NCBI GenBank assembly: GCA_009995425.1 | Contig: JAACPN010000021.1 | Span: forward strand, 1-34,383 | Reading direction: 5' to 3' | Origin: Legionella sp. | Lineage (GTDB): Bacteria > Pseudomonadota > Gammaproteobacteria > Legionellales > Legionellaceae | DNA length: 34,383 bases | Shown here: positions 8,002-34,383 of the stretch, in pieces | How positions within the stretch are numbered: position 1 is the first letter of the stretch | Layout of the letters: the number at the start of each line of letters is the position of its first letter | Translations under genes and position numbers: made by a program | The notes under the pieces: generated by a model | Database searches by the model: none | Told to the model about the DNA's origin: nothing | What the model saw: the letters and a program-made list of their open reading frames with translations, nothing else

Positions 8002-8103
8002 AAACAATCACCTTCATGCATAGATTTAACTAACATAGAGGAAGTCACGGCCAAGCGCAAGCAAATTGAACGGCGACGATCACGGATTTCTCGTAACTTT
8101 CTA

Positions 8104-8133
8104 CTGGCAGAATCCTGCTGTCACTGCTATGAT
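8104..8133 (+). promoter_or_regulatory. Putative sigma-70 promoter of the cytochrome c oxidase operon
   Basis: CTGGCA (8104-8109) and TATGAT (8128-8133) are separated by 18 bases. The -10 is preceded by TGC, giving an extended -10. It lies 45 bases upstream of the tetraheme cytochrome start, whose ribosome site AAGGA is at 8165-8169. Sequence match only. Confidence 0.45.
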
Positions 8134-8177
8134 CGCGACCTACATCTTATTTTTCAACAAGAAGAAGGACGCATGCA

Positions 8178-20180: not shown

Positions 20181-20256
20181 TCCCCGGTAGCTCAGTCGGT
20201 AGAGCGGATGACTGTTAATCATTAGGTCGGCGGTTCGAGCCCGTCCCGGGGAGCCA
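20181..20256 (+). tRNA. tRNA-Asn (anticodon GTT), CCA encoded
   Basis: The cloverleaf is complete. The acceptor stem is TCCCCGG/CCGGGGA, the D-arm GCTC AGTCGGTAGA GAGC, and the anticodon GTT is at 20214-20216 between GATGACT and AATCATT. The T-arm is GGCGG TTCGAGC CCGTC, the discriminator is G, and CCA is at 20254-20256. Its 3' part (20211-20256) is repeated at 33067-33112, so the tRNA is the integration site of the downstream island. The copy attached to the island restores an intact tRNA. Confidence 0.97.
20211..20256 (+). repeat. attL: left copy of the 46-bp attachment repeat (3' part of tRNA-Asn)
   Basis: It is identical to 33067-33112 from ACTGTTAATC through the CCA. The crossover probably lies in the anticodon/T-arm region, as for many tyrosine integrases. 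After the repeat, both copies continue with a similar segment ending in GGTTGTGGC at the same distance (11 bases), so the island also carries an imitation of the tRNA trailer. Confidence 0.92.
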
Positions 20257-20302
20257 CACCAACTCTAGGTTGTGGCAACACCCACCGAAGTTATGAAATT
20301 CT

Positions 20303-20326
20303 CATGTAGAAGCAATGTAGAAAGAT
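20303..20326 (+). repeat. 24-bp direct repeat near the left island end (possible integrase arm site)
   Basis: The 24 bases starting CATGTAGAAGCAATG are identical to 32926-32949 near the other end. Within the repeat the octamer ATGTAGAA occurs twice, 11 bases apart. Short direct repeats flanking both att sites are typical of arm-type binding sites for tyrosine integrases or sites for an excisionase. The otherwise empty 20257-20358 stretch shows nothing more. Confidence 0.75.
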
Positions 20327-20358
20327 AGCGAGATTAAGTAAAGTTAGATGATGCTAAA

Positions 20359-21987
20359 ATGGAGCAATCTTCGCCCATGTCAAATGTATCCATATTCAAT
20401 TTTTCTACTTTTATTTCAGCATTATCATTATTCCTTATAGTATTCACTATAATAGACATTCGTTATCGTTTCCGAGTTGCTGTAGCACCATTCCCTCTAT
20501 TTAAAATTAGTTTGGCATCAATAGCTCTACTAGGGTTGAGTACTTTAGTCTTGGATACAGGAGCGATTGAAGGTTGGACTAAATTTTTAGAGCATCAAGA
20601 TCGTTGGCAAGCTGTGCTTGGCTTAATTTTCCTATGCCTAATCTTTATCTGGATTTTATTTATTTTCAAACCATCTAAATTTTCCAAATGCAACGCTAAA
20701 AAATTCACACAACATTTATATCTGCTGATTCTAAAAGGAGCGGATACTGAGCTTTCTGTCATCTCAGATGAACTAAAATTCTCAGCGGAGCTTCTTGTCA
20801 GGTTAACTAAAGAGAATATCCCCAATGAAAAGATCAGCACGCCCAAAGCGAGGGATTACGCCTATGAAGTTTTATCGCTCATTGGTAACAGGAAGTTTTG
20901 CCAGCATGTTGTTTCAAACGCCCCCGTCACAGCAATTATTCTTTTTGAGTCAATTGCAAAAACTAAAAAATATAATATTCCTATAGAACAATTCGCAAAA
21001 AACATTACTACGGAAGCAATACTTAATAAAAACTCTATCCTGTATCATGAGGATGAGGGCTATAAATCAGGATTAATTGGTTATATAAAGCCTTTTAGCC
21101 GCGTTGTATACGGCAATCATCACTTAGTTGAAGAGCTCGGCATTCATCATGCTTCACCTCTTGATATCCATATTGAAATTAAATCTTTCTGGGATGCAGC
21201 ACAATTAAATACATACTGCAGATGTGTCATGCTCAGTTTCAAAAATTACATTGATACTGCTAATTGGAATGAAAAATTATTTTCTTTATGTCGTGCATTT
21301 GAAAATATAAGAAATTCGTGTGGAAATATCTATAGGCTTAATGAAGCTGGTGATGACTTATCCAAGCACACTAGTTATAACTGTTTGAACATTACTGTGG
21401 AATTTTTCAAAGAGGCTATTAATTACCTAAGTCAACAAGAAAATACACCACCTGCCAAGCTCAAACGAAGAAATAACAGCCATTCATATGAGGATATATA
21501 CGATTATTTTACCAATCACCTTTTTGAAATTATACATTCTGCAGCCTATATTAACTGTCCAAATTTTAATTGCTGGATGATACAACATAACATTGTTTGG
21601 TGTGCATTTTTTAAATCGCATCAAAACCAAAGATATGCCTGGAAAATTATTCATAATAGATTAAGACGTCTGTTATACAACGAAATAAAGCACCTTGAAA
21701 CGTACCCCAACTACAAAGGAGCTAGAATATTAGGATATTTATTAAATATCATGGGATTAAAACTAGGGGAAAAAAGCAGAAATAACAGAGCTTATTATTC
21801 GTTTCATAAAATAATTTTAAAATGGGTAGAAAATAATTATTTAAGTTTAGCTGGGGTTGAACCAACGGTGGCTTCCTCTTGCCTACCAAACGGTTTTCTG
21901 TTCAATAAAAAAGCAAAACAAATAGAAAAAACCTATTCAATAGGTATGGGCTCTAAGATTCAAAAAGATTTTTTAAATTTATCTTAA
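20359..21987 (+). CDS. Membrane protein of unknown function, three N-terminal helices
   Basis: The 542-residue protein belongs to no family I recognise. Three hydrophobic segments lie in the first ~105 residues (about 12-32, 48-65 and 85-103), followed by a long soluble, mainly helical part rich in Asn, Lys, Tyr and His. No catalytic motif is evident. The gene is AT-rich with codon use unlike the backbone. It may start at 20359 or at ATG 20377, and neither has a strong ribosome site. It lies alone at the tRNA end of the island, a common place for accessory or defence genes. Membrane anchor plus large cytosolic part would fit a sensor-effector of abortive infection, but that is speculation. 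A hairpin at 22030-22069 follows. Confidence 0.75.
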   Translation: MEQSSPMSNVSIFNFSTFISALSLFLIVFTIIDIRYRFRVAVAPFPLFKISLASIALLGLSTLVLDTGAIEGWTKFLEHQDRWQAVLGLIFLCLIFIWILFIFKPSKFSKCNAKKFTQHLYLLILKGADTELSVISDELKFSAELLVRLTKENIPNEKISTPKARDYAYEVLSLIGNRKFCQHVVSNAPVTAIILFESIAKTKKYNIPIEQFAKNITTEAILNKNSILYHEDEGYKSGLIGYIKPFSRVVYGNHHLVEELGIHHASPLDIHIEIKSFWDAAQLNTYCRCVMLSFKNYIDTANWNEKLFSLCRAFENIRNSCGNIYRLNEAGDDLSKHTSYNCLNITVEFFKEAINYLSQQENTPPAKLKRRNNSHSYEDIYDYFTNHLFEIIHSAAYINCPNFNCWMIQHNIVWCAFFKSHQNQRYAWKIIHNRLRRLLYNEIKHLETYPNYKGARILGYLLNIMGLKLGEKSRNNRAYYSFHKIILKWVENNYLSLAGVEPTVASSCLPNGFLFNKKAKQIEKTYSIGMGSKIQKDFLNLS

Positions 21988-22029
21988 TTTTCCGCCCACT
22001 ATAGACCAACGTTGAAGATTATCATAAAT

Positions 22030-22069
22030 TTGAAAAGATATGAATGAATAGAAGAGTCTATCTTTTCAA
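22030..22069 (+). terminator. Hairpin after the 542-aa membrane protein gene
   Basis: TTGAAAAGATA (22030-22040) and TATCTTTTCAA (22059-22069) make a perfect 11-bp, AT-rich stem with an 18-base loop, 42 bases after the stop codon. It is a possible weak terminator for either strand. Confidence 0.4.
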
Positions 22070-22147
22070 TCAGCTTTAAATCGCTCTAAACATTCATATA
22101 CTTCAGCCGACAACTCGCTCATAGCGTATACAGGGTAGATAATCATA

Positions 22148-22453
22148 ATGAATCATAATGTTATCACGGGTTGGATAGTCGCTATTTTTACAGCGATTGG
22201 TCTTTTAATAACTGCCGTTCTCTATATTGGAAATATAAATGGCAAGTTACTCCTATTGGAAGATAATTTAAAAGTTATGACAAATAGGATGGATGGGCTA
22301 TATATTTATATTGCAGAGCAAGGTGGTAGTGTTAAAAAAGCTGTCATGTCCTCAAATTTGGATGCGACCACTAAGGATCGGATTATTAAGAGTTTTTTAC
22401 CAAAAGATTCTCAATTAAAATCAAATTCAAAATTTAAGAAAATAAAAAATTAG
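22148..22453 (+). CDS. Small membrane-anchored protein, unknown
   Basis: This 101-residue protein has one N-terminal membrane helix (about 6-29, ITGWIVAIFTAIGLLITAVLYIG). A probable short coiled coil follows (about 33-50, KLLLLEDNLKVMTNRMDG) and then a basic tail with many Lys and Asn. The shape is like holin-accessory or spanin-like proteins and many phage or island membrane proteins, but no family is recognised. The start lacks a clear ribosome site (GGGTAG well upstream). It lies 160 bases after the 542-aa gene and may accompany it. Confidence 0.55.
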   Translation: MNHNVITGWIVAIFTAIGLLITAVLYIGNINGKLLLLEDNLKVMTNRMDGLYIYIAEQGGSVKKAVMSSNLDATTKDRIIKSFLPKDSQLKSNSKFKKIKN

Positions 22454-22524
22454 CTATTTAGTTAAATTTTCGCTTTGTGAAAGTAAAAACAACAAGCACC
22501 ATTGTTTCATTTACGCCATACAAA

Positions 22525-22551
22525 TTGATTTTAAGTCATAAGTGCTATACT
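22525..22551 (+). promoter_or_regulatory. Putative promoter of the HicA-like toxin/antitoxin pair
   Basis: TTGATT (22525-22530) is 15 bases from TATACT (22546-22551). The spacing is short, but TGC just before the -10 box gives an extended -10. The toxin start follows 28 bases later with a strong AGGAG (22567-22571). Confidence 0.4.
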
Positions 22552-22579
22552 TACATCATGCGCTTCAGGAGAAATTTGA

Positions 22580-22843
22580 ATGACTGTACCGGCTCATCCT
22601 GATAAGGATATTAGAAAAGCAATTACAGAAGCCTTGCAAACTAATTGGGATTTTAAAAAATTAGGTATGGGCGGTCATTCTCATGCATGGGGATTGTTAA
22701 CATGCCCTGCTAAATTGAATAGACCTTTTAACGAATGGTGTAAGCAGATTATTATTTATGGTACCCCAAGGAATCCATCAGCAATTGCAAGAAGGATATT
22801 AAGTTATGTTAAAAAATGCATGCACCAACCAAAAATTCTTTGA
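22580..22843 (+). CDS. HicA-like small protein, putative toxin
   Basis: The 87-residue protein begins with HPDKDIRKAITEALQTNWDF and has GGHSHAWGLLTC. Its C-terminal segment IIIYGTPRNPSAIARRILSYVKKC resembles, from memory, a widespread family of small proteins with a HicA/dsRBD-like fold in which a central His is kept (H33/H35 here). HicA toxins cut mRNA; whether this branch does is not shown by sequence alone. The start is clear: AGGAG eight bases upstream of ATG 22580. The next gene begins inside its last 38 bases, so the two are translationally coupled in toxin-then-antitoxin order, as in hicAB. Confidence 0.7.
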   Translation: MTVPAHPDKDIRKAITEALQTNWDFKKLGMGGHSHAWGLLTCPAKLNRPFNEWCKQIIIYGTPRNPSAIARRILSYVKKCMHQPKIL

Positions 22844-23075
22844 ATTTACTTTAAAACTAAATACGATGAGTTTCGATGAAGATGTTGCCAATATTTTATA
22901 TGAGGCAGGGTGCGATGACGCATTATTTAATTCAGATGTGACTGGAGTTTATTTGGACTTTTTCAGAGAAGATAGATCTTTGGAAAAAGCCATAGCGAGT
23001 GCTATCGCTGATGTAAAAAAAGCTGGCTTTGATGCTACCCTTTATGAGGAAAATTGTCTGGATGCTCGTTTTTAA
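22806..23075 (+). CDS. Putative antitoxin partner without a DNA-binding domain
   Basis: The 89-residue protein has FEFTLKLNTMSFDEDVANILYEAGCDDALF, an acidic alpha/beta start. It continues GVYLDFFREDRSLEKAIASAIADVKKAGFDATLYEE. Relatives I remember continue after this point with a helix-turn-helix domain, but this copy ends with NCLDARF and stops. It would therefore neutralise the toxin by binding only, without autoregulation, unless another regulator (for example the nearby XRE protein) does that. ATG 22806 has GAAGGA nine bases upstream, within the toxin gene. The family assignment is from memory and unverified. Confidence 0.7.
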   Translation: MLKNACTNQKFFEFTLKLNTMSFDEDVANILYEAGCDDALFNSDVTGVYLDFFREDRSLEKAIASAIADVKKAGFDATLYEENCLDARF

Positions 23076-23210
23076 AAACTTCTAAAGCACAGTACGAGCA
23101 TTCTTAGTTCTTTATCTCAGCCAATACTTGTAAATATCTCAGAATCTAAAATTACCTCCATTATAAAAAATGCTCTAGCCCTTAATGAAGAGGGACTCCA
23201 GACCGAGCAA

Positions 23211-23243
23211 AGGGGTGGTCTCTGTGGTGGATCCCCACCCCCT
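23211..23243. terminator. GC-rich hairpin between convergent genes
   Basis: AGGGGTGG (23211-23218) and CCACCCCCT (23235-23243) can form a stem of about eight pairs with one bulged C. They lie between the antitoxin stop (23075) and the end of the minus-strand zinc-ribbon gene (23295). There is no T-run on either side. It may serve as a bidirectional terminator. The GC-rich patch is unusual in this AT-rich island. Confidence 0.35.
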
Positions 23244-23294
23244 CTTAAGACTTCCGTAAAAGCACGCCTCTATGACATTGATTAGGAGCCTAAC

Positions 23295-24968
23295 TTATTC
23301 TTTAGCACTCCAACAAAGAGGGCAGTTAGTACCATTGAATCTATTATCAATTGAAGCCTGCCATTCATGCCCTTTTCCACATAACCACCAAACTTTCTTA
23401 TTGCTCCTGGGTAAAAACATCTCTGGCATAAGCTCGTTATTTTTATCCGGATGCCATTCCTTAACTAACTCAGGGCTTTTAACCGCTAAGTTATTATCAT
23501 GAGTTGCTTGTTTCCCGCTGCAATATGGGCATCCTGTACCTTGTGGCCGCGTTCTACTGTTTGGTGTTGCTTCCCATTCATGCCCTTTTCCACACAACCA
23601 CCATACTTTAATTCTTGACCCATATGATAACTGCGCTGGCTGGTAAACATTTTTACTAGGATGCCATTCTTTTAACAAACCTGGATGCCCTGCAATAGAC
23701 CGCTTCATTAATGGGGCGGGGAGAGCGGACACTATTGCACCGTACTCCTCCTTATTTGTATATTCATTTGCACATATATACTCATCAATTTTTTGTCTAT
23801 CAGTCTCAGTTAACTTCAACTTCAGCCTTATAAAGGCTAAAAGACGAAGAACAACATTAAGATGCTCCTCACCATTTACATAAGGAATAGAATTGCTTTC
23901 ATTGACCTCCAATCGGTCATCTACAACACGAATTAAAGTGACGCCATTAGCAGCAAGCGTGGTTTGCTTGGCTTTATCAGCTTGCTTTCTTCCATCGCTC
24001 TGATGCCAATAAAAACCATCGATCTCAATCCCCAATGCAAGCCGAGGAATATACACATCGACTTCTTTTTTATGCACCTTTTCTTGCCATAGTGCATCGT
24101 CAAAGATGCGTTTCAACTCACAATAAATTCTAATTTCAAGACGAGAGGTTCTTATATTACATTTTGGACAATTATGGCCAGCTGCTCTCGTATAAACAGC
24201 CGCTTCCCATTCATGGTTCCACCTACATTGCCACCATACTCGTTTTTTGGAACCTGGGGTCACGCTTTCAGGAGTAAGGGGTTTATTTTTTTCTGTATGC
24301 CATTCAGAAATTAAATGAGGGTGTTTTATTGCAAGATTATATTCTGAGGACGCTTTTTTTTCTGCACAATAAGGACAATCACTTCCCTTAAATCTATCGC
24401 CAACACAAGCTTGCCATTCATGGCCTTTTTCACACAACCACCATATTATTTTAGGCGTTTTTGGCGTAATTTCAAAAGGTGTTAATGGGTTATTTTTCTC
24501 AGGATGCCATTCTTGAGCCAGTCGTGGGCTTTTTATGGCAAGATTGTATTCAGGGCTGACGATCTTTCCAGCGCAATAAGGACAGCCCGTCCCCATATAT
24601 CTATTGCCGGTTTTAGCTTGCCATTCATGACCTTTCTTACATTGCCACCAAATTATATCCTTTCCTCTAGGCGTTACATCAAATGGGCTTAAATCAGCAT
24701 TTTTAGTTGGATGCCACTCTTTGAGTAAGTGAGGGCATTTAACTGCTAAATTGTTTTCTTGTGATAATCTTCGGCCACTACAAATCGGACACCCTGTCCC
24801 TCGATAGCGATTCCCAACGACGGCCTGCCATTCATGACCTTTTTTACAAATCCACCAAAACTTCTTATTTGAAGAATATGAAACCTCATGAGAGGTAAGG
24901 GAGTTTTTGCTTTTATGCCACTCTTCGCTTAAATGAGGGGCTTTACTTGCTAATGAATTTATTTTCAT
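23295..24968 (-). CDS. Six-zinc-ribbon protein with embedded Vsr-like nuclease
   Basis: The 557-residue protein has modules of about 65 residues with the pattern LA.K.P.L..EWH..KN, WW.C..GHEW and CP.C, resembling DUF4379 (zinc ribbon). Four copies cover about 5-270, two cover about 425-552. Each has the Cys/His set for one zinc. Between them, about 275-352, lies a nuclease-like domain: E278, D304 in EVDVYIP, E315 and D317 in GIEIDG, H322 in FYWH, then GVTLIRVVDDRL. This resembles Vsr mismatch endonuclease and DUF559 proteins (PD-(D/E)XK fold). It may be a DNA-recognising nuclease with zinc ribbons reading the target. A role in anti-phage defence is inferred from location. The nearby divergent XRE gene may control it. 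Confidence 0.8.
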   Translation of the reverse strand: MKINSLASKAPHLSEEWHKSKNSLTSHEVSYSSNKKFWWICKKGHEWQAVVGNRYRGTGCPICSGRRLSQENNLAVKCPHLLKEWHPTKNADLSPFDVTPRGKDIIWWQCKKGHEWQAKTGNRYMGTGCPYCAGKIVSPEYNLAIKSPRLAQEWHPEKNNPLTPFEITPKTPKIIWWLCEKGHEWQACVGDRFKGSDCPYCAEKKASSEYNLAIKHPHLISEWHTEKNKPLTPESVTPGSKKRVWWQCRWNHEWEAAVYTRAAGHNCPKCNIRTSRLEIRIYCELKRIFDDALWQEKVHKKEVDVYIPRLALGIEIDGFYWHQSDGRKQADKAKQTTLAANGVTLIRVVDDRLEVNESNSIPYVNGEEHLNVVLRLLAFIRLKLKLTETDRQKIDEYICANEYTNKEEYGAIVSALPAPLMKRSIAGHPGLLKEWHPSKNVYQPAQLSYGSRIKVWWLCGKGHEWEATPNSRTRPQGTGCPYCSGKQATHDNNLAVKSPELVKEWHPDKNNELMPEMFLPRSNKKVWWLCGKGHEWQASIDNRFNGTNCPLCWSAKE

Positions 24969-25097
24969 GCTTCACTTGGTAGTTAATCAAACCAATTGAA
25001 GGCTTTTGATATATAACTGGCCTCACTATAACCAATGAATGGTTAAGTCACATCCTGTGAGGTATTTATTTGAATCCCTAAAAATTTGAGACGAAGC

Positions 25098-25183
25098 GAT
25101 AACTTAAGCCTTCACCGTCCGACCCGCACACAAAATGGTGCTTATAGTCCGTGGTGACATTATCACTTTTATCTTAAGTTATC
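25098..25183. promoter_or_regulatory. Operator-like inverted repeats upstream of the XRE gene
   Basis: GATAACTTAAG (25098-25108) and CTTAAGTTATC (25173-25183) are perfect 11-bp inverted copies 64 bases apart; the second ends four bases before the XRE start codon. Between them lies another dyad, GTGA (25154-25157)/TCAC (25163-25166). This is the arrangement expected for a self-regulating XRE repressor binding at two sites, possibly with looping. Confidence 0.55.
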
Positions 25184-25187
25184 AAAC

Positions 25188-25424
25188 ATGAAAAAAGACC
25201 CTCAGCTATTAAAATTAGGTAACAAAATCCGAGAGGTGCGCAAGGCGCATGGTTTTTCGCAAGAAGCGATCGCCTCAGAATCAGGGGTAGACCGAAGCTA
25301 TATGGGTAGCGTAGAGCGGGGAGAAAGAAACATTGCTGCTCTTAATTTAATTAAAATCGCACAAGCACTGAACGTAGAAGTTGGTGATCTTTTTCCATTA
25401 ATTCACGTATTTAAAAACAGTTAA
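25188..25424 (+). CDS. XRE-family DNA-binding regulator (C-protein/Stl-like)
   Basis: The 78-residue protein is a single helix-turn-helix domain: LGNKIREVRKAHGFSQEAIASESGVDRSYMGSVERGERNIAALNLIKIAQAL. This is very like controller (C) proteins of restriction-modification systems and small phage repressors. It lacks a peptidase or ligand domain, so control probably depends on concentration. It is divergent from the zinc-ribbon nuclease gene with a 219-base shared upstream region that contains candidate operators. On a satellite it could be the master repressor that a helper phage relieves, or the timer of the nuclease. No modification methyltransferase is present, so a classical R-M role is unlikely. 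Confidence 0.88.
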   Translation: MKKDPQLLKLGNKIREVRKAHGFSQEAIASESGVDRSYMGSVERGERNIAALNLIKIAQALNVEVGDLFPLIHVFKNS

Positions 25425-25491
25425 TTCCTTTTAAATTAATTGTAAAATTCACGTTCTCTATTCTGAAAATAATAGGTGGGCGCTTTCTTCC

Positions 25492-25560
25492 TTAGTCGTT
25501 TCTTGCGAGATACAACTCAAGAATGATGACTAGCGTTCCTATGACAAACCATAAAGGCAT
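25492..25560 (-). CDS. 22-residue single-helix membrane peptide
   Basis: The small ORF reads MPLWFVIGTLVIILELYLARND. An AGGAG ribosome site (25567-25571 on the plus strand as CTCCT) lies six bases before the ATG. A promoter candidate lies further upstream (25590-25618). The peptide is one short hydrophobic helix ending in Arg-Asn-Asp, the shape of KdpF-type or type I toxin peptides (TisB, Ldr). A competing ATG five bases upstream leads to an 8-codon frame. With promoter, ribosome site and ORF all in register, I judge it real although very short. It lies between the XRE gene and the terminase small subunit gene. Function unknown. Confidence 0.5.
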   Translation of the reverse strand: MPLWFVIGTLVIILELYLARND

Positions 25561-25589
25561 TGCATGCTCCTGTAATTAAGCGAAGCGTC

Positions 25590-25618
25590 AATATATAGCA
25601 CATATGATTAACCATCAA
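25590..25618 (-). promoter_or_regulatory. Putative promoter of the 22-residue membrane peptide
   Basis: Read on the minus strand, TTGATG (25618-25613), exactly 17 bases, then TATATT (25595-25590). The predicted transcript starts about 20-25 bases before the peptide's ribosome site. It lies just downstream of the terminase small subunit stop. Confidence 0.5.
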
Positions 25619-25661
25619 GCACCTGGTCGTTAATCGAATATTTCCTGTAAAGCGGCTTTGG

Positions 25662-26135
25662 TTAATAATCACGAGCATATTTAGTTTCAAGATCAGCGCT
25701 TAACTGTCGTAACTCCTCTGACATACGGGTATCGCTTTCAATGTCTATTTTATTACCATACACCTTTGGAACTAATTTACATGCTAACCATTTACGTGTA
25801 TCAACTTTTAAGCGCGCTCTGTTTATGGCTGGCGGATTAGGGATTAATGCCCCCTGCTCATTCACATACTGATCTTGAGACGTGTCATCAGAAATTTCCA
25901 GTATTTCATCAACAAGAAGCTCTATTTGAGATATTTTTGCTTGCGCGTACTGCTCGGAAAACTCAGAATATGTTTTTAACCAAGTGAATAAGGTATCTTG
26001 GCATGGCCAATGGGAATGCTCAGCACATAACTTTTTTGTGCCTTTGCTTGATGATGCAATTTTATCGCAGATCTCTTTTGCTAGAGCATCAGTATATTTC
26101 GTTGGCCTACCTTTTTTTGCTGACACTTCAATCAT
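25662..26135 (-). CDS. Phage terminase small subunit-like protein (TerS)
   Basis: The 157-residue protein would recognise the packaging site and load the large terminase. The N-terminus KKGRPTKYTDALAKEICDKIASSSKGTKKLC with DTLFTWLKTYSEFSEQYAQAK is the helix-turn-helix of Sf6-type small terminases. RARLKVDTRKWLACKLVPKVYGNKIDIE is their typical C-terminal block. The start is clear (AAGGAG seven bases upstream). It is the last gene of the minus-strand replication block, and no large terminase, portal or capsid gene is present. A lone TerS in an integrated island suggests redirection of a helper phage's packaging, as known for SaPI-type satellites. A remnant of a deleted prophage is the other reading. 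Confidence 0.85.
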   Translation of the reverse strand: MIEVSAKKGRPTKYTDALAKEICDKIASSSKGTKKLCAEHSHWPCQDTLFTWLKTYSEFSEQYAQAKISQIELLVDEILEISDDTSQDQYVNEQGALIPNPPAINRARLKVDTRKWLACKLVPKVYGNKIDIESDTRMSEELRQLSADLETKYARDY

Positions 26136-26160
26136 TTTATACTCCTTTTTGAGTTAAAAC

Positions 26161-26520
26161 CTAATCCATTAATTTACTGAATTGTACGCAATGCCTTTCA
26201 GCATAACGAAATAAAGGCCTACGTCCATTGTACTCTTGTGTCCATTTTATGCCTAATGCACAGTCACCAATGCCCGCGCCATCACCAATTTCATCGGGTG
26301 TAAATAGTTCACAAGTATTGCAAGTTACTATTTTAAAATTGGGTTGTTCTCCAATCGAAACTGAATTCTGTGGTCTTATTTTCAGTATTGGCTCAAGAGG
26401 TGGGGCTACTGCTAAAGTTGCTAATAGCTCGGAGGTTACTATATATTCATTAGCAACTTTAGCAGTGGTAGCAGTAGCAGTTCGTGCTCTGATTTCTTTT
26501 CTTAGATTAGCAATCGTCAT
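26161..26520 (-). CDS. Cys-containing small protein of replication block, unknown
   Basis: The 119-residue protein starts at ATG 26520 (TTG 26538 is less likely), with GGGGG just upstream. The C-terminal half has CNTCELFTPDEIGDGAGIGDCALG and YAERHCVQFSKL, four Cys that could hold one zinc. Similar CxxC..C..C proteins sit next to primases on other islands as I recall. The N-terminal part is a low-complexity Ala/Thr stretch encoded by an 18-bp inverted repeat. It overlaps the end of the primase gene by 14 bases and ends 25 bases before TerS, so the three are probably one transcript. Confidence 0.7.
   Translation of the reverse strand: MTIANLRKEIRARTATATTAKVANEYIVTSELLATLAVAPPLEPILKIRPQNSVSIGEQPNFKIVTCNTCELFTPDEIGDGAGIGDCALGIKWTQEYNGRRPLFRYAERHCVQFSKLMD
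26408..26466. repeat. 18-bp perfect inverted repeat inside the 119-aa gene
   Basis: ACTGCTAAAGTTGCTAAT (26408-26425) and ATTAGCAACTTTAGCAGT (26449-26466) are perfect inverted copies with a 23-base loop, within coding sequence. In protein they encode TATTAKVANE-like and LLATLAVA-like stretches. The stem is too long and perfect for chance. It could be an mRNA structure, a protein-binding site or the footprint of a small insertion. Confidence 0.85.
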
Positions 26521-28942
26521 TTTTACCCCCACCGGCAAGCAGTGCTGGATTTATTTCAATGCATTTAGTATTTTTATTACTTAATAATCTGGCACGGTTA
26601 AGATGTTCAAGCTCTTCCAATGCCACTTTAAGTATTGATGATTTTCTAAGACGTTTAGGCCCAAATTGTAGTACTTTAGAAAACGGAGCTTGCTTGAGCT
26701 TTTCTTTTTGGCAATAAGCAATTAACCACTCCTCGAGGAGTAACGCATTAGCTAGCTCAGGAGGCAACACCAATTCCGCAAAGAATCGTTGAGCTTCTCC
26801 TAAGTGCCATAATATAATCAGGCTTGCACTGTCAAAAGAATCGCTCCCTACTTCCCCATTAATCCCATGCTCAATCAAATGAAATAGACACGCCAACCGT
26901 GCAGCATTATCGGCAGCTTTACTTGCTACATCACGAACATCATATAATTCCCCTCCTTTGTGTAACTCACTTTCAAGCCCGTCATGAAATCTCACCCATG
27001 CTAATTTTGCTAAAGATGCTAATGTCATTAATTTAGGCGTTAAAATGCCCTCACTATCAATGGGAGGCGATGTATTTAATATCTGGGATATGCTCTGATT
27101 AAACGCCTCCAAACATGACCATTTATCTGGCGGATCAGTATAGAATCGGCTGCCTTGGGTTGATTCGGGCCGAGAGAATAACACCCGGGCAAAGAACCCC
27201 GTACCTCGAGCCAAACTGCCTAATTGCGATGTAAATTCTCTAATCGTTGATTCCTGAACCTGAACACCCATAGTCAGGCGTACTTCTTGTATGCCTAATG
27301 ACTCAGAGGATATGCGATCAGTTGGAACACTTTTACCATCCCAGCATTGGTTATAGGTTGCAAGATTTCTCATTACGGAGTCTTTGTTCATGCCATGAGC
27401 ACCAAATACAATACCACCCTCGCTTGATACAATGCCTGCAGCTGGCCAAATCGTGCCTAAATTACGTTTTAATGCTTCTGGTGTAATATCGCTATAACAA
27501 AGTTTGGGTACTTTAGGCAACTTTGGTTTAATCAATTCAAGCTTGAGGAGCTCCGTTTCTTGGATGGCAGTATCGTTACCTTTGCCAGCTAATTGCCGTA
27601 TTTTAGTTTTAACGCCCTCTACTTTAGACTGCCAAGCCGCCAATTTTGCGTTATATTCTTTGATTAATGGTTTAGCAGCATCTTCCTTGTTTTTCACATA
27701 ATCATGAATTGCGCGCGTAAAGAAACCATCGCAAGTTGATTTTCTTTCTCCTGAATCAGCAATCGTGATTAAAAACAGTCCTGTAGGCCCTGACAGTTTT
27801 TCAGCACGTTTTATATCAACATAAGTTTGCCCAACCAATGAGAGCGCAGTAATTGCTGATGCTGCAACAAGTGGAAGAGGTGCTTTTGTGAAGCTCTGCA
27901 CTTCAATGACAGCTTCTCTTATGGTTTTTGGTAATGCATCTAAAGGGTATGGTTCCGCTGCGATGCTCGACGCTATTGGCAGTGGATCAAGCCAAATATT
28001 AGACTCATTATTCTTTAAGTTGTCATCGTCTATAGGTTTGTTTGCATGGGCTATAGCCTTTTGCACAGATTTAAGACCATATAACGCAGCCATGTCATTA
28101 AAATCTGTTTTATTATCTGCTCTGTTAGCATCAAATATTGGCACTGCTAACAATCCATTGATATGGAGTGCAGCGTCAGTTGCCCTACTTAAACCCGGGT
28201 TACCATCTACCTTAAAATCATCATCCGCACAAAGAATAAGAGTCAATTCAGGAAATTTTTCACGCATGATTGCTGCGACGGCTAATAAATTACCGGCATT
28301 AAATGCTACCGCAATTGGATAATCGGTTGCCTCATGAACAGTTGCGCCAGTAGAAAAACCCTCAACAATGCAAAGAACTTTAGCGTCTTGAATAGATCCG
28401 ATACTAAAATAGCAACCAGACACTCGCCCACCTGTTAAGAAGCGTTTTTCACCACTTGGGTATATATATTGAAGCGAATGCAACTTCCTATTTTCGTCCC
28501 ATAAGGGGATGATTAATATGTCTTTAATGATTTTTGCACCATGGGCTTTAATCTGCTTCTTTTCCAAATATAAGTGTGTATTCGCGGTACTTGCTTTTTT
28601 CCAAATCGACAGTGCTTTAGCTTGAGCTTCGGCTTTAATTGAAATCTCTTCTGCTTGACGTTTCATCTGCATTTTTTTTACTCTATCCCGATGTTTTTCC
28701 TCCTCAATAGGAGATAGAGAACGTCCAATATTAGCGTGCCAATTTTGATTTATCCCAGTGCGCCAATCACCAAAACATCCTGCGGGAATACCATCACCAT
28801 GTAACACATACCAGCCAGCTCGATCATTATGTTTTCCATTACTAGAAAAGCGATACAACTGACCATCCGCGTTGATTATTTCAGGGGGAATTATACCTGC
28901 TGATCGAATAACTTCACTAAATTGATCCATACAATCAAACAT
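26507..28942 (-). CDS. TOPRIM/DUF3987 primase-helicase-like replication protein
   Basis: This 811-residue island replication protein has an N-terminal primase-like part and then a TOPRIM domain: IVEGFSTGATVHEA with E194, and the metal-binding LCADDD near 238-242. From about 330 on it is DUF3987: APLPLVAASAITALSLVGQ and an ATP-site variant ITIADSGERKST near 391-402, as usual in this family. The start ATG 28942 overlaps the 61-aa gene by eight bases. It probably starts replication of the excised island (Pri-Rep of satellites, or P4 alpha in function). No separate origin is obvious. Confidence 0.88.
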   Translation of the reverse strand: MFDCMDQFSEVIRSAGIIPPEIINADGQLYRFSSNGKHNDRAGWYVLHGDGIPAGCFGDWRTGINQNWHANIGRSLSPIEEEKHRDRVKKMQMKRQAEEISIKAEAQAKALSIWKKASTANTHLYLEKKQIKAHGAKIIKDILIIPLWDENRKLHSLQYIYPSGEKRFLTGGRVSGCYFSIGSIQDAKVLCIVEGFSTGATVHEATDYPIAVAFNAGNLLAVAAIMREKFPELTLILCADDDFKVDGNPGLSRATDAALHINGLLAVPIFDANRADNKTDFNDMAALYGLKSVQKAIAHANKPIDDDNLKNNESNIWLDPLPIASSIAAEPYPLDALPKTIREAVIEVQSFTKAPLPLVAASAITALSLVGQTYVDIKRAEKLSGPTGLFLITIADSGERKSTCDGFFTRAIHDYVKNKEDAAKPLIKEYNAKLAAWQSKVEGVKTKIRQLAGKGNDTAIQETELLKLELIKPKLPKVPKLCYSDITPEALKRNLGTIWPAAGIVSSEGGIVFGAHGMNKDSVMRNLATYNQCWDGKSVPTDRISSESLGIQEVRLTMGVQVQESTIREFTSQLGSLARGTGFFARVLFSRPESTQGSRFYTDPPDKWSCLEAFNQSISQILNTSPPIDSEGILTPKLMTLASLAKLAWVRFHDGLESELHKGGELYDVRDVASKAADNAARLACLFHLIEHGINGEVGSDSFDSASLIILWHLGEAQRFFAELVLPPELANALLLEEWLIAYCQKEKLKQAPFSKVLQFGPKRLRKSSILKVALEELEHLNRARLLSNKNTKCIEINPALLAGGGKNDDC

Positions 28943-29120
28943 TGCGCAGCCCCCACCGACGGCTAATACGTTCCGCCAATTTCAACGACACTATTTCAAA
29001 CGCAACCAGCCTCCCCAATAATCGTTTTACAAAAACAGCCATTACTAATGGAATTTTAGGTTTAACAATTTTTTCAATACGTTTATTACTACATTGAGGT
29101 CCGACCGAATGATTAGGCAT
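28935..29120 (-). CDS. Small basic protein between AlpA-like regulator and primase
   Basis: The protein is 61 residues from ATG 29120, which has AGGTGG six bases upstream; a GTG start at 29144 would be poorer. It begins MPNHSVGPQ and has a hydrophobic middle, KIPLVMAVFVKRLLGRLVAFEIV, with a basic end (SRRWGLRNV). It overlaps the AlpA-like gene at its start and the primase gene at its end by eight bases each, so it is translated within the operon. No known family. Confidence 0.6.
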   Translation of the reverse strand: MPNHSVGPQCSNKRIEKIVKPKIPLVMAVFVKRLLGRLVAFEIVSLKLAERISRRWGLRNV

Positions 29121-29445
29121 GTTGATCCACCTGCTTATATTCACTTGTGGAGGTGACCAACGCGTGACTTTCTAGCCAATTAATAACATCGCGTTTTTGA
29201 TATAAAACACGACCGCTTACCTTGCGGTAGGGTATACCTCTCCCTCTCCAACGATCAGACTCTAATGTTTTAATACTTTTATTTGTAACCGGAGCTATGG
29301 TTTCTTGACCAAAAAATGCCTCAACTGATGCATCCCAAAAAAATTGAATAAGTTCAGCTTCAGTTTTTTTTATTTTGGCCATTCTTTTTTTACGGTGACA
29401 TGGTACTGGCAACGCAGAATCCAAGTTCGATAAAGTTATTTTCAT
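29113..29445 (-). CDS. AlpA-like winged-helix regulator/excisionase
   Basis: The 110-residue protein (ATG 29445; TTG 29460 is the alternative) is a small DNA-binding protein. The segment FFGQETIAPVTNKSIKTLESDRWRGRGIPYRKVSGRVLYQKRDVINWLESH is the MerR-like winged helix of AlpA/Xis-type proteins. The upstream part is basic (CHRKKRMAKIKK). In P4-like elements and Gram-negative PICIs, AlpA turns on the integrase/replication genes. It is first in the minus-strand primase operon, followed without gap by the 61-aa gene. Confidence 0.75.
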   Translation of the reverse strand: MKITLSNLDSALPVPCHRKKRMAKIKKTEAELIQFFWDASVEAFFGQETIAPVTNKSIKTLESDRWRGRGIPYRKVSGRVLYQKRDVINWLESHALVTSTSEYKQVDQHA

Positions 29446-29519
29446 TGATATTTCTCTCAAAAGTAATGTCTAAGAGAAAATAGTAGCGCACATAAAAGAC
29501 TATTAGCTAATAAAACAAT

Positions 29520-29559
29520 CAACCGGCTTTAGGTGCTAAAATGCGGATAAAGTTGGTTG
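29520..29559. terminator. Stem between the int operon and the alpA operon
   Basis: CAACCGGCTTTA (29520-29531) and TAAAGTTGGTTG (29548-29559) form a 12-pair stem on the plus strand with two G-U pairs. On the minus strand, which is the direction of the int-yhcG operon ending at 29571, there are two mismatches, but ATTGTTTTATT follows, like a terminator tail. Confidence 0.4.
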
Positions 29560-29570
29560 GATGATTTTAT

Positions 29571-30644
29571 CTATTCAGTTGAACTTTTGCGTATAACGGC
29601 GAGAATTTGTTTGCCAAGAGCATGTTTTTTATCGAGATCAATATAGAATAGATGTGTGTCTGTAGGTTGCGGTTGTTGTGTGCAACGTTTTTCATAGTTG
29701 CAATCAATTGCTTTAAATACAGCATGACAAAAATCATAAAATTGACCTTGATATGTGGCGCCTTGTGCATGTACTTTAGGCTGCTTAAAGTTATCCTTTA
29801 CCTTCCTTCCTGTAAATTTTTCATATATTTTTATCAATGAATCAATAAGATATTTTGCCGCATTAAACGTATTATCACCTCTCTTTTTTTCTGATGGAGT
29901 GATAATAAGTGCAGGACAATCTAGCTTTTCGAGAATGATATTCAATTTGTTGATGTGATCCGAATTTTTAACGAGGCTCTTTTTTTCATCAAAATAATCA
30001 GTGCGATATTGCGTTAACAAGTTGTTATCCGTTATAGAATATTCTCGATATGAACTTTGAGCGCATTGATCATACATAGCGCAATACCCTACTTTGAATG
30101 TTTGCTCATCTGCATCGTAAATGATCAAAACTTCTTGTTGTTGGGTTACTTTTTTCTTATCATCGGATGTCGGCGACGAATAAATGATACGCGCCAAACG
30201 ACCATCTATACGCTCAATTGCACCCTTGGTTGCGCGATGCATTTTGTCAGCTAAATCAGAGAAGCTCTGTAGTTGTTCAATATCATGGTTTAAATATTGA
30301 TAGGTGAGATAGCCATATTTTTGCAGTAATATTATCATATCTTCTCGAATACGGTCCGCGGAAGTTGAAATGCTTTGTAGTAATTCTTTTTCATCCGCTC
30401 TACTGGGAGAAACCGTATCGATGTGTGGATAAAAACAAGCGCCTCGTCTTAACACATTGTTAAGCATTGCAGTTAACTGCGTACATTCTATGCCTTGGTT
30501 TACAATACCCTCCTTATCATCAAATAATATAGAACTAGCACTGGTAATATCATCATGCGAGAAAAAATCGCGCATGAATGGTGCGTTTTCGGGTGTTGAA
30601 AAATAACGACGTTTATTCTTGTATTCAGCTTTCTTTCCCATCAT
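29571..30644 (-). CDS. Protein of unknown function downstream of YhcG nuclease
   Basis: The 357-residue soluble protein has no recognised motif. It contains RYFSTPENAPFMRDFFSHDDI, a helical middle (about 75-140), and a beta-rich part EVLIIYDADEQTFKVGYCAMYD. The end is basic (DLDKKHALGKQILAVIRKSS). It begins 20 bases inside the yhcG gene, and with yhcG overlapping int the three form one operon. A partner or regulator of the nuclease is a plausible guess from position only. A prophage cargo gene without relation is also possible. Confidence 0.72.
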   Translation of the reverse strand: MMGKKAEYKNKRRYFSTPENAPFMRDFFSHDDITSASSILFDDKEGIVNQGIECTQLTAMLNNVLRRGACFYPHIDTVSPSRADEKELLQSISTSADRIREDMIILLQKYGYLTYQYLNHDIEQLQSFSDLADKMHRATKGAIERIDGRLARIIYSSPTSDDKKKVTQQQEVLIIYDADEQTFKVGYCAMYDQCAQSSYREYSITDNNLLTQYRTDYFDEKKSLVKNSDHINKLNIILEKLDCPALIITPSEKKRGDNTFNAAKYLIDSLIKIYEKFTGRKVKDNFKQPKVHAQGATYQGQFYDFCHAVFKAIDCNYEKRCTQQPQPTDTHLFYIDLDKKHALGKQILAVIRKSSTE

Positions 30645-31686
30645 TTAACTCCGCTTCAATTTCTGCCACTGTTGGCAAGCTGGTTTTAAGTTCTTTAGGT
30701 AGCGCTTTAGCAAGGGTATATTCTGAGATGCCAATAGGTGCGTTCATATTGCGTAATGCATACTCCGCCACTACTTTATTTTTCGATTTGCAGAGCAAAA
30801 TACCGAGGGTTTTATTATCACCCTCTTTGCACATCAGCTCATCAACGGCTGTCATATAGAAACCAAGCTGGCCCGTATGTTCCGGTTTAAATTTAGTGGC
30901 CTTGAGCTCAATAACGACGAACGCGCGCAAGTGCAAGTGATAAAAAAGCAAATCAACAAAAAATTCCTGATCATCAAACGTCAAGGGTACTTGTGAGCCA
31001 ACAAAAGCGAAGCCTTGCCCAAGCTCAATAAGAAAGTCGCGTATGTGCGTAACCAACGCATCTTCAATGGCTCGTTCATGCGCCTTGCCTTGAATGGTCA
31101 GGAAGTCAAAGTTGTAAGGGTCTTTCAAAATTTCGTTGGCTAAATCAGACTGTAGAGCCGGCAAGTGTTTGTCAAAATTGGTAATTTTCTTACTCGACTC
31201 GGCTTGACGCTCATACAGGCCACCTTCAACCTGCATTTCTAGCACAGCGCGCGACCAGCCGTTTTTAATGGTCTGGTTAGCGTACCATTCGCGTTGCGCC
31301 CCATCTTTAATCATCTGCATTAAACGAACAATATGCCCCCACGGTAATTGGGGCACAGCTTGTGCCCTAATTTCAAAATCAGGGTAAGCTTGAGCAAACA
31401 GCCGCATTCTTTTAAGGTTCGTAACAGAAAAGCCCTGCATTTCAGGGAAGGCTTGCCGCATATCATGTGAAAACTGCTCTAAAAAATGTGATCCCCATTG
31501 ATGTTTTTTTTGTTTTTCAATTAAATCTGTACCCAACTCCCAGTAAAATCTAATTAATTCGCTATTGGCGGCAAGAGCAGCACGTATCTGGGACGTTTTT
31601 AAGCGGGTCTTAATGCCGCTGAAAAACTCCATGTACTCTTTATCCAAATGCAACGAACCATCTTGGGCTTTAATGTTTTTACTCAT
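30625..31686 (-). CDS. yhcG: YhcG-family PDDEXK nuclease (DUF1016)
   Basis: The protein is 353 residues, normal length. The N-terminal DUF1016_N domain is seen in YWELGTDLIEKQ, WGSHFLEQFSHDM and GFSVTNLKRMRLFAQAYP, then LPWGHIVRLM. The C-terminal nuclease fold has D245 in FFVDLLFYHLHLRAFVVIELKATKFKPEHTGQL, E260 and K262, the D...ExK of the PDDEXK superfamily. This family is found in restriction-like and mobile-element contexts; its exact substrate is not known to me. It starts eight bases within the integrase stop, so it moves and is expressed with the integrase. It is probably cytoplasmic and a defence gene or maintenance gene. Confidence 0.92.
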   Translation of the reverse strand: MSKNIKAQDGSLHLDKEYMEFFSGIKTRLKTSQIRAALAANSELIRFYWELGTDLIEKQKKHQWGSHFLEQFSHDMRQAFPEMQGFSVTNLKRMRLFAQAYPDFEIRAQAVPQLPWGHIVRLMQMIKDGAQREWYANQTIKNGWSRAVLEMQVEGGLYERQAESSKKITNFDKHLPALQSDLANEILKDPYNFDFLTIQGKAHERAIEDALVTHIRDFLIELGQGFAFVGSQVPLTFDDQEFFVDLLFYHLHLRAFVVIELKATKFKPEHTGQLGFYMTAVDELMCKEGDNKTLGILLCKSKNKVVAEYALRNMNAPIGISEYTLAKALPKELKTSLPTVAEIEAELNDGKES

Positions 31687-32908
31687 AAACTGCTCCTTGT
31701 TTTGGTTGGATTGTTAATACAGTGGCGGACGGTTCCACCCCCATGCATTTCAAAAAATAATCCGTAATTTGTTGCATGGGTTTTCTTAAGCGCTCAACGT
31801 CGGTAACGATATATCCGGCGGTGATGTCGCCATTCATCTTGTGGTTCATTAACCGTTTCAACGCGTAAGCTGAAATGTCCAAGCCTTCAGCTATTGTGAT
31901 GAACGTGCGTCTTAAATCATGAACCGTAAAATGAATGCCTGAAAATTTGGTCACATTCGCCATTTGTTTACGTGGTTCGATGATATAACCAGCAGCGCCC
32001 GAACCAGGAAAAACGTAATCATTTGTTTTTCTTTGGCTGCGCAATAATAGCAATTCATAGAGGTAAGTAGAAAGAGGTAGCGTGTGGGGTGCATGATTTT
32101 TTGTATCAAGCACGGTTAATGTTTTGGCGACAAGATCAATTTGCTCCCATTTGAGCGTTGCCGCCTCTTGTCGACGCAATCCAGTAAGGATAAGCAATAC
32201 AAGATAATCTTGTAATGTTTCATTTTGAAGCTGTTGCACACCAGCATACCAGGGCGCTAATTCATGGGCTTTGATGAATGTTTGGCGACGTTCAACACGA
32301 TACCATGCGCGCGTCTGTGAGAGCCGCTTGACTGGATTCTCAGTGATGATTGATTGACCTTGCGAGTCTTCATACTGGCCGGCTGCAAAATTAAATAGAG
32401 CACGAAGCAATCGCATCGCCAAATTAGCATAGGCTTCGCCGTTCTCTTTACCAAGCTTCTCATGATGCTTCGCAACTTTGTCTTTGGTAATCGACAAAAG
32501 CGGCTTGCCCTTCCAGCCAGCAAAGCCCAGATTGAGCACGCGCTCGTAATTATAAAGTGTGTTAGGTTTTAACGACTTCCTGGCTTGCTTGTAATCCTTA
32601 AATACTTGCTCCAAGGTGATGATACTCATCTTAAGCGCTTGTTTCTCAGCAATGGGGTCAACCCCTGTGGCAATTTGGCCAATGATTTTCTGTGCTTCTT
32701 TACGGGCTTGCTCAACGGTTAAGGCCCCGTACTTACCTAATGTAATCCTACGTACTTTATTGCCGATATTTTTCTCAACGACAAAGCTTTTGGTACCACT
32801 GGCAGTAACACGCAGTGCAAAACCTTTCAATTGCTCATCACGATAAAAAATTTGGCCCTTTTCAACGGGTAATTGCGCATTATCAACATTTTTTTTGGTC
32901 AGTTTCAT
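31679..32908 (-). CDS. int: Tyrosine recombinase integrase
   Basis: The protein is 409 residues from ATG 32908 (MKLTKKNVDNAQL). GGGGGC lies nearby upstream, and a TTG start at 32962 would run through the 24-bp repeat. The N-terminal DUF4102-type domain (FYRDEQLKGFALRVTASGTKSFVVE) is typical of P4-like tRNA integrases. The core-binding domain is at about 97-190. Catalytic residues visible are Arg in LTGLRRQEA, Lys in LDTKNHAPHTLPL, HDLRRTF, His in LMNHKMNGDI and Tyr in TAGYIVTD. It faces away from the tRNA-side att and lies beside attR. Overlaps yhcG by eight bases. Confidence 0.95.
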   Translation of the reverse strand: MKLTKKNVDNAQLPVEKGQIFYRDEQLKGFALRVTASGTKSFVVEKNIGNKVRRITLGKYGALTVEQARKEAQKIIGQIATGVDPIAEKQALKMSIITLEQVFKDYKQARKSLKPNTLYNYERVLNLGFAGWKGKPLLSITKDKVAKHHEKLGKENGEAYANLAMRLLRALFNFAAGQYEDSQGQSIITENPVKRLSQTRAWYRVERRQTFIKAHELAPWYAGVQQLQNETLQDYLVLLILTGLRRQEAATLKWEQIDLVAKTLTVLDTKNHAPHTLPLSTYLYELLLLRSQRKTNDYVFPGSGAAGYIIEPRKQMANVTKFSGIHFTVHDLRRTFITIAEGLDISAYALKRLMNHKMNGDITAGYIVTDVERLRKPMQQITDYFLKCMGVEPSATVLTIQPKQGAVYE

Positions 32909-32925
32909 GGAACGCCCCCTTTCTA

Positions 32926-32949
32926 CATGTAGAAGCAATGTAGAAAGAT
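32926..32949 (+). repeat. 24-bp direct repeat near the right island end (possible integrase arm site)
   Basis: This is a perfect copy of 20303-20326, in the leader of the integrase gene. A further ATGTAGAA lies at 32951-32958, with related ATATAGAAG and GGTAGAAAC at 33035-33054. The cluster upstream of int could let the integrase bind and repress its own promoter. The remaining bases 32950-33066 hold no gene. Confidence 0.75.
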
Positions 32950-33066
32950 TATGTAGAATCACTTAGAATAATTAAGTGGTAATTATAAGCGCCAACCCCC
33001 TATATGTATAGGTTTAATGGGGTTTTTTAGGATAATATAGAAGTGGGTAGAAACGTTTATTTTATA

Positions 33067-33112
33067 ACTGTTAATCATTAGGTCGGCGGTTCGAGCCCGT
33101 CCCGGGGAGCCA
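33067..33112 (+). repeat. attR: right copy of the 46-bp attachment repeat
   Basis: This is a perfect copy of the tRNA-Asn 3' part without a 5' half, so it is not a functional tRNA. It marks the right border of the island, 158 bases from the integrase start. The chromosome resumes after it, with the original tRNA trailer (GGTTGTGGC at 33124-33132). Confidence 0.92.
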
Positions 33113-33218
33113 TACCACATAAGGGTTGTGGCGTCCTAGCTCGAAATTATCAAACCAAAATTTCCAAAAACGTTCCTCTAAACGTTCCTGCGCCCAATTT
33201 GTTAAGCAAATTTTATTG

Positions 33219-33224
33219 TATAAT
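33219..33224 (+). promoter_or_regulatory. Putative -10 box of the phosphotransferase gene
   Basis: TATAAT, a perfect -10 match, lies 30 bases before the start codon of the phosphotransferase. No good -35 box is visible at 16-18 bases; TTTGTT is 15 bases upstream. A ribosome site is only weakly present (AGGTAG at 33243-33248). Confidence 0.4.
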
Positions 33225-33254
33225 GTCGCCAATTCTCAATTCAGGTAGTTATTT

Positions 33255-34190: not shown

Positions 34191-34305
34191 TTTTCTTGAT
34201 GCGTTGAATCAAACAACTCCCCAACGCATTATGATCATGGGACGTCCTGGAAGTGGAAAATCAACTTTTTCCATAAAACTACAATCCATCATGGATTTTC
34301 ATTAA
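34168..34305 (+). pseudogene. Truncated P-loop kinase fragment
   Basis: A 45-codon frame begins ATG 34168 inside the previous gene and reads QRIMIMGRPGSGKSTFSIKLQ, a Walker A motif of a small kinase of the adenylate-kinase-like / FlaR type. It reaches only MDFH before a stop at 34303. Full-length relatives continue for about 120 more residues, so the gene has been cut off by a deletion, insertion or recombination near 34285-34305. The remaining bases to 34383 are AT-rich and show no gene. Confidence 0.6.
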
Positions 34306-34383
34306 GATAAATCAGGTAACGCTACCGCCACTGAAATTAATTTTTAAGCCTCCCATCCAAGGTATGGATGTTTCATTTTTAAG

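What the first reader, a model, noticed from the sequence alone, without database searches (positions are those of the whole stretch)
20257..33112. A phage-satellite (PICI-like) island in tRNA-Asn
A 46-bp att repeat, a P4-like integrase, AlpA-like regulator, TOPRIM/DUF3987 primase, XRE repressor and a lone terminase small subunit occur together, without structural, large-terminase or conjugation genes. This set fits elements that hijack a helper phage. Such satellites are hardly described in this bacterial group.
Basis: partly seen in the sequence, partly recalled or inferred. Interest (0 to 1): 0.8.

Follow-up and report, generated by a model that had tools for sequence, protein, structure and literature searches.

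The report
Phage satellite island in Legionella family
A 12.9-kb stretch of this bacterium's chromosome looks like a complete phage satellite, a mobile element that copies itself and probably borrows a virus's shell to travel, and it belongs to a mix-and-match group of such elements in the Legionella family.

Summary
Window 20257-33112 is bounded by an exact 46-bp repeat of the tRNA-Asn 3' end and carries a P4-type integrase, a weakly supported AlpA-like protein, a TOPRIM-DUF3987 primase, a lone Sf6-type small terminase (TerS) and an XRE protein; the ORFs scanned gave no structural, large-terminase or relaxase hit. The host is in Legionellaceae. It does not look like a prophage remnant: of 22 family TerS loci with at least 3.5 kb held downstream, 20 lack large terminase and portal; nine att-bounded TerS elements of 8.5-13.0 kb, this one included, sit at three tRNA genes; core genes are under purifying selection. 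New here: integrase arm repeats 47 and 121 bp inside the att cores, a layout repeated in an IMG/VR contig that reads as the circle of a relative; and a two-sided iteron cluster just 3' of the primase in 9 of 9 loci with a close primase, in none of 20 others, a published PICI hallmark. Helper, induction and packaging are untested.

The parts
20181..20256 (+). tRNA-Asn (anticodon GTT), integration target
   Evidence: ARAGORN, Rfam RF00005
20211..20256 (+). attL core, 46 bp
   Evidence: exact copy of 33067-33112
20304..20322 (+). left integrase arm site: two ATGTAGAA half-sites, 11-bp period, 47 bp inside the core
   Evidence: function inferred
20359..21987 (+). orf542, unknown cargo (92% identical copy at the same place in L101)
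   Evidence: phrog_25374 2.9e-62
22148..22453 (+). orf101, unknown cargo (51% relative in L083)
   Evidence: no family
22580..22843 (+). orf87, unknown; overlaps orf89
   Evidence: no family
22806..23075 (+). orf89, candidate defence or toxin-antitoxin protein
   Evidence: PADLOC PDC-M06B 8.6e-15
23295..24968 (-). DUF4379 repeats with a PD-(D/E)XK-like part, nuclease cargo
   Evidence: DUF4379 1.9e-116; MTES_1575 9.3e-5, below cut-off
25188..25424 (+). XRE protein, control-protein type
   Evidence: HTH_3 5.9e-14; PADLOC control protein 1.5e-21
25662..26135 (-). TerS, Sf6-type small terminase subunit without large subunit
   Evidence: PF20901 3.2e-31; phrog_1482 2.4e-33; family profile to Sf6 gp1 structures 7.2e-29
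26161..26538 (-). orf125, between primase and TerS; carries the iterons at its start
   Evidence: homologues in L029, L032
26408..26466 (.). predicted replication origin: exact 18-bp inverted repeat of TGCTAA/TTAGCA units around a 23-nt spacer (61% A+T)
   Evidence: function inferred
26507..28942 (-). TOPRIM-DUF3987 primase-helicase
   Evidence: phrog_2249 1.7e-73 and phrog_2373 8.5e-59
28935..29144 (-). orf69, small ORF conserved in L031/L116 and L032/L117
29113..29460 (-). AlpA-position regulator, weak HTH match
29571..30644 (-). orf357, unknown accessory protein
   Evidence: no Pfam or NCBIfam family
30625..31686 (-). YhcG-type PD-(D/E)XK nuclease, candidate defence gene
   Evidence: YhcG_C 5.2e-64; PADLOC PDC-S02 9.6e-143
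31679..32962 (-). P4-type tyrosine integrase
   Evidence: phrog_1 1.8e-54
32927..32945 (+). right integrase arm site, 121 bp inside the core (one further ATGTAGAA at 32951)
33067..33112 (+). attR core, 46 bp

Best explanation
A complete, selectively maintained phage satellite of the PICI kind in Legionellaceae. Proposed cycle: (1) the integrase binds core and paired arm repeats and excises the 12.86-kb element as a circle (layout shown; excision inferred from a circular relative); (2) the AlpA-position protein switches on the int-to-TerS operon when a helper phage is active (inferred, by analogy with EcCICFT073); (3) the primase-helicase starts replication at the iteron pair just 3' of its gene (cluster shown, function inferred); (4) the satellite's Sf6-type TerS brings satellite DNA to the large terminase of a P22/Sf6-type phage, so that satellite DNA fills phage heads (inferred); (5) the nucleases are cargo that probably protect the cell from other phages (inferred).
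For: Exact att repeat and intact core ORFs; arm repeats with 47/121-bp geometry here and in L101, 47/120 in circular contig L125, whose single core matches a tRNA-Thr 3' end; iteron cluster 3' of the primase in 9 of 9 loci with a close primase and none of 20 others, the published PICI origin layout; 20 of 22 assessable family TerS loci lack large terminase and portal, against 51 of 80 IMG/VR TerS loci that have one; nine att-bounded TerS elements at three tRNA genes; dN/dS 0.06-0.10 for TerS, 0.19 for the primase; TerS homologous to Sf6 gp1; phage contig L126 with a 53% TerS and a large terminase 81% identical (381 aa) to a Legionellaceae prophage's.
Against: No helper seen in the host genome, which is 97% complete in 83 contigs. 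AlpA assignment weak. No exact empty site for this element. Best phage TerS only 53% identical. L125 could be a tandem integrated array, and its primase alignment has a 12-residue gap near the contig join. TerS rows without large terminase are not one clade: phage rows L027, L102 and L113 fall in the same half of the tree. Locus L038, with a 50% identical primase, lacks the iterons. No particle or induction data.
Confidence: 0.8

Rival explanations
1. A deletion remnant of a prophage that once carried capsid and tail genes, TerS being a leftover.
For: TerS is a phage gene, in 6 of 6 phage records read followed by the large subunit.
Against: The same compact layout recurs with different integrases, sites and primases; low dN/dS; att-bounded ends intact; phage relatives of this TerS share no other island gene in the DNA compared, save weak primase hits in L148 and L190.
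Confidence: 0.06
2. An integrative element that moves by another route (conjugative mobilisation, natural transformation); TerS has a regulatory or other role.
For: No helper in the genome; defence-like cargo; Legionella species can be naturally transformable (papers seen in listings).
Against: No relaxase family among the ORFs scanned (oriT not searched). TerS kept with dN/dS 0.06-0.10 at the end of the replication operon in elements with different integrases.
Confidence: 0.1
3. A satellite that is now stranded: intact genes but no helper left in this lineage.
For: Small genome without a P22-type portal or phrog_2 hit; helper-type portals in only 3 of 144 family genomes.
Against: Helpers may be infecting or virulent phages that leave no prophage; closely similar modules in other genera imply recent transfer.
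Confidence: 0.04

Closest known systems
Gram-negative PICIs (EcCICFT073; PMC6092414, passages seen)
   Same: Integrase, regulator, primase in one unidirectional operon; tRNA-type site; no structural genes; about 12-15 kb; origin of two iteron sets just 3' of the replication gene
   Different: Own Sf6-type TerS (EcCICFT073 needs the phage's terS); TOPRIM-DUF3987 primase; regulator only weakly AlpA-like; cargo at the end away from the integrase
SaPI-type PICIs that carry terS (as described in PMC6092414)
   Same: Own TerS placed after the replication genes, implying pac-type redirection
   Different: TerS here is Sf6-type, homologous to P22/Sf6-like phages; no Stl-type divergent switch identified; no capsid-morphogenesis gene found
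EcCIMP1 with helper Kapi1 (PMC11773190, passages seen)
   Same: PICI core genes; helper called a close relative of P22
   Different: EcCIMP1 lacks identifiable terminase genes by its authors; it is about 20 kb and at tRNA-Thr
PICMIs of Vibrionaceae (PMC10803314, abstract and one section seen)
   Same: int, alpA, prim core; no capsid remodelling genes; defence cargo
   Different: PICMIs sit at fis and average 6.7 kb; here tRNA-Asn, 12.9 kb, with TerS
P4-like satellites (recalled; PMC8628076 listing only)
   Same: P4-type integrase, tRNA site, primase-helicase, defence cargo
   Different: No P4 capsid or regulatory family hit; own TerS

Membership tests
PICI (criteria of PMC6092414) | Integrase, replication module and regulator in conserved order | tested here: met
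   the regulator itself is weak (next row)
PICI | AlpA or MerR-type regulator | tested here: inconclusive
   HTH_17 E 0.035 below cut-off; model pLDDT 53; same slot holds Phage_AlpA in L029
PICI | att site never used by prophages | tested here: inconclusive
   53 loci at this tRNA-Asn, 893 ORFs, no large-terminase or portal hit, but only P22/Sf6-type queries and 47 of the 129 located sites plus 6 TerS loci were looked at
PICI | No phage structural or lytic genes | tested here: met
   for the window (orf69 not scanned); relatives: 67 leftover ORFs, 25 of 27 PHROG families listed, none structural, one further small-terminase hit
PICI | Size about 12-15 kb | tested here: met
   12,856 bp; several relatives are smaller, 8.5-10.3 kb
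PICI | Origin immediately 3' of the replication gene, two iteron sets flanking an AT-rich stretch | tested here: met
   spacer 61% A+T; origin activity not tested
PICI | Helper-dependent induction, packaging into particles, interference | not testable with these tools
   no experiment; L125 is indirect evidence for a relative's circle only
PICMI | Integration at fis | tested here: not met
   tRNA-Asn site; criterion in PMC10803314
P4-like satellite | P4 sid, psu, delta, epsilon genes (recalled) | tested here: not met
   no such family among hits
Capsid-forming PICI | Own capsid genes (recalled) | tested here: not met
Integrative conjugative or mobilizable element | Relaxase | tested here: not met
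   no relaxase family; oriT not tested

The most novel reading that the evidence does not exclude
Legionellaceae hold a family-wide satellite system built from exchangeable parts: integrase with matching arm repeats (tRNA-Asn, two tRNA-Leu, tmRNA), primase with matching iterons, and a packaging slot after the primase that holds either an Sf6-type TerS or one of several unrelated small proteins, each of which would select a different helper phage. Such satellites would then be a main carrier of anti-phage genes in this family.
Probability: 0.35. Interest if true: 0.75.

Novelty: new variant of a known kind. Interest (0 to 1): 0.62.

Why it matters
If these islands are satellites, their TerS points to P22/Sf6-type phages as helpers in the Legionella family and gives a way to look for them. 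It would extend PICI-type elements to a family in which my six searches of open-licence papers that name Legionella or Legionellaceae together with satellite, PICI or prophage terms showed none in what I saw (listings, and term look-ups in two papers; PMC look-ups). The co-occurrence of primase type with iterons, and of integrase with arm repeats, turns a gene list into a testable map of attachment, origin and packaging parts.

Tried and rejected
Empty site: in 7 of 7 congeners the tRNA-Asn has no second core in the DNA held downstream (785 to 17,819 bp), but that DNA does not match the window's right flank, and the APH-family gene is absent from all 7; so no exact empty junction is claimed. 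I then fetched 40 further sites, picked by me from the 129 genomes with the flanking gene, mostly for long contigs: 11 of 40 have a second core in the held DNA.

Large terminase by phrog_2 proved insensitive for this phage type (it missed G025:C529 and was weak in G131), so P22_portal and own phmmer query sets were used. The primase found no relative in IMG/VR. The AlpA model was too poor for a fold search. Whether the 200-aa and MGGFGSG proteins in the TerS slot are terminases is unresolved. XRE as the satellite's master repressor: I prefer a control protein of the nuclease cargo (inference). One dN/dS pair (XRE with L087) was undefined and dropped; several dS values exceed 1 and are saturated. 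Left out of the 20-of-22 count: 11 loci with under 2 kb downstream or without an intact TerS ORF, and two fragment loci (the second G070 locus, G037:C10) not classified. In one search, 28 loci plus the window's island were scanned, with the rest of the window as control; of the 20 without the cluster, L039 and L118 end just after the primase and could not show it. In one search, eight replication or regulator ORFs had been removed by me from the 75 to shorten the list; only 25 of 55 families were shown. ORFs already matching known element genes were not in either set.
Full report
Where it is. The window is the whole of contig C82 of a 1.86-Mb genome, 97% complete, in 83 contigs. The host itself is unnamed.

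Boundaries. tRNA-Asn 20181-20256 is intact; its last 46 bases recur exactly at 33067-33112, spacing 12,856 bp, G+C 38.9% against 45.0% for the window left of it.

Gene content. One minus-strand run holds integrase, YhcG-type nuclease, orf357, AlpA-position protein, orf69, primase, orf125, TerS; cargo lies beyond TerS. The ORFs scanned hit no structural, large-terminase or relaxase family. TerS is Sf6-type: Pfam 3.2e-31, and the profile of 24 family TerS finds Sf6 gp1 structures at 7.2e-29. In 6 of 6 phage records read, the homologous gene is followed by the large terminase; here it is not.

Att architecture. A 24-bp exact repeat lies just inside each end. It holds two ATGTAGAA half-sites with an 11-bp period, 47 bp inside the left and 121 bp inside the right core. 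The 19-base unit is found twice where 0.01 is expected. I read these as integrase arm sites. L101 (G071) has the same tRNA, repeats and 47/121 spacing. I found no such pair by the same rule in 6 of the 8 other bounded elements tested; they carry more distant integrases.

A circular relative. IMG/VR contig L125 (9,675 bp) has TerS and integrase 64% identical and a 43% AlpA-like protein. Its primase reads in frame from the contig end into its start, aligning over almost its whole length to the L098 primase (57%), with a 12-residue gap near the join. It has one 46-bp core at 4654-4699 between cargo and integrase, with paired TTCGACA repeats 47 and 120 bp away. That core matches the 3' end of a tRNA-Thr(CGT) gene in G007 with 3 mismatches (1 of 144 family genomes). 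This is the expected attP. No exact terminal repeat of 9 bases or more exists; a tandem integrated array and a few missing bases are not excluded.

Origin. Just 3' of the primase gene, at the start of orf125, lies an exact 18-bp inverted repeat of TGCTAA/TTAGCA units around a 23-nt spacer; folding z -5.4. Counted in 130-bp windows, 9 of 9 loci whose primase (whole or C-terminal part) is at least 57% identical peak there with 4-9 units, Markov shuffles reaching at most 3-4; none of 20 other loci exceeds 3. Limits: L030 and L034 reach only 4 against a shuffle maximum of 3; L039 and L118 end just after the primase; L038, at 50% identity, lacks the cluster. Single-strand folds of seven of those relatives gave z from -1.3 to -4.4. 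[quoted passage not shown]

Not a remnant. TerS was found in 30 of 144 family genomes. Of 33 loci classified, 22 hold at least 3.5 kb downstream: 20, the window included, lack large terminase and portal; 2 (G025, G131) have both. With the same method 51 of 80 IMG/VR TerS loci show one or the other. Att-bounded TerS elements: tRNA-Asn 12,856 (window), 12,979, 10,086 and 8,497 bp; tRNA-Leu(caa) 10,234, 8,465 and 10,315; tRNA-Leu(cag) 9,262 and 8,878. At the tmRNA gene 6 of 7 loci tested showed no repeat in the held DNA and one a 21-base repeat. In a tree of 24 family TerS without a seen large terminase and 10 phage TerS the labels need 4 changes against 8.8 in shuffles, but they are not one clade: phage rows L027, L102 and L113 fall in the same half; some of the 24 lie at contig ends. 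dN/dS: TerS 0.06-0.10, integrase 0.04-0.06, YhcG about 0.03-0.04, AlpA-like 0.10-0.20, primase 0.19, orf125 0.45.

Modularity. L029 shares primase, orf125, TerS, XRE and DUF4379 (71-92%) but has a different integrase and sits at the tmRNA gene. L101 shares site, orf542 (92%), integrase (82%) and YhcG (87%) but has another primase and a 50% TerS; L083 has an 87% TerS at tRNA-Leu. Recent exchange is inferred.

Helper. None is seen in the host genome. P22-type portals occur in 3 of 144 family genomes. Phage contig L126 has a TerS 53% identical to this one and a partial large terminase 81% identical (381 aa) to that of the prophage in G131: the best helper guess.

Cargo. YhcG (PDC-S02, 9.6e-143), a DUF4379/PD-(D/E)XK protein beside a control-protein-like XRE, and orf89 (PDC-M06B). 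Among 67 leftover ORFs of the bounded relatives and L125, PADLOC lists AbiE, PD-T7-3, HEC-09 and DrmC models (25 of 42 families shown).

What follows the island. A different arm repeat (AACGTTCC twice) starts at 33169. The same repeat follows tRNA-Asn in G099 and G060 and lies at both ends of the G060 element; in G132 it precedes a 91% identical APH-family gene in the same position. The window thus probably ends inside a second element. APH is a broad phosphotransferase family; no resistance is claimed.

Literature. PMC6092414: passages. PMC10803314: outline with abstract, and one section. PMC11773190: passages. PMC11472951 and PMC9393566: term look-ups. All others: listings. Ten searches were made, six of them naming Legionella or Legionellaceae; I saw no Legionellaceae PICI or satellite report in them. 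Papers outside that library were not seen.

Verdict. A PICI-like satellite with its own Sf6-type TerS. In-silico criteria are met except that AlpA and att exclusivity stay inconclusive; the biological criteria are untested.

Noticed in passing
window 33113-34383: Probable left end of a second tandem element (arm repeat at 33169, APH-family gene at 33255-34190); a 91% identical gene follows the same repeat in G132.
   Followed up: partly
L125 (IMGVR_UViG_3300046516_002098), 1-9675: Reads as a closed circle of a related satellite with a tRNA-Thr attP.
   Followed up: yes
L033, L034, L036; L035, L037; L038, L230, L246: Related elements have other small proteins in the TerS slot: a 200-aa family, an MGGFGSG family, and a 154-aa plus 92-aa pair; the L038 92-aa protein weakly matches small-terminase PHROGs (2.9e-4).
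   Followed up: partly
L041 (G000:C52): The same genome has another satellite-like locus: XRE 72% identical, an AlpA-like ORF, a split TOPRIM/DUF927 primase.
   Followed up: no
L108 and L109 (G028, G029): In two congeners a YhcG gene 77-79% identical lies downstream of tRNA-Asn without the rest of the island, perhaps a remnant.
   Followed up: no
L032 / L244 (G142): Two integrases between tRNA-Asn and the far end suggest two elements in tandem at this site.
   Followed up: no
window 23295-24968: The DUF4379 gene is built of about six repeats with a period near 207 bp.
   Followed up: no
L118 (Competibacteraceae MAG); Primase relatives occur outside the family: 16 genomes besides G000 of 369 sampled in the class at E <= 1e-60, and L118 with a 39% integrase beside it.
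   Followed up: no
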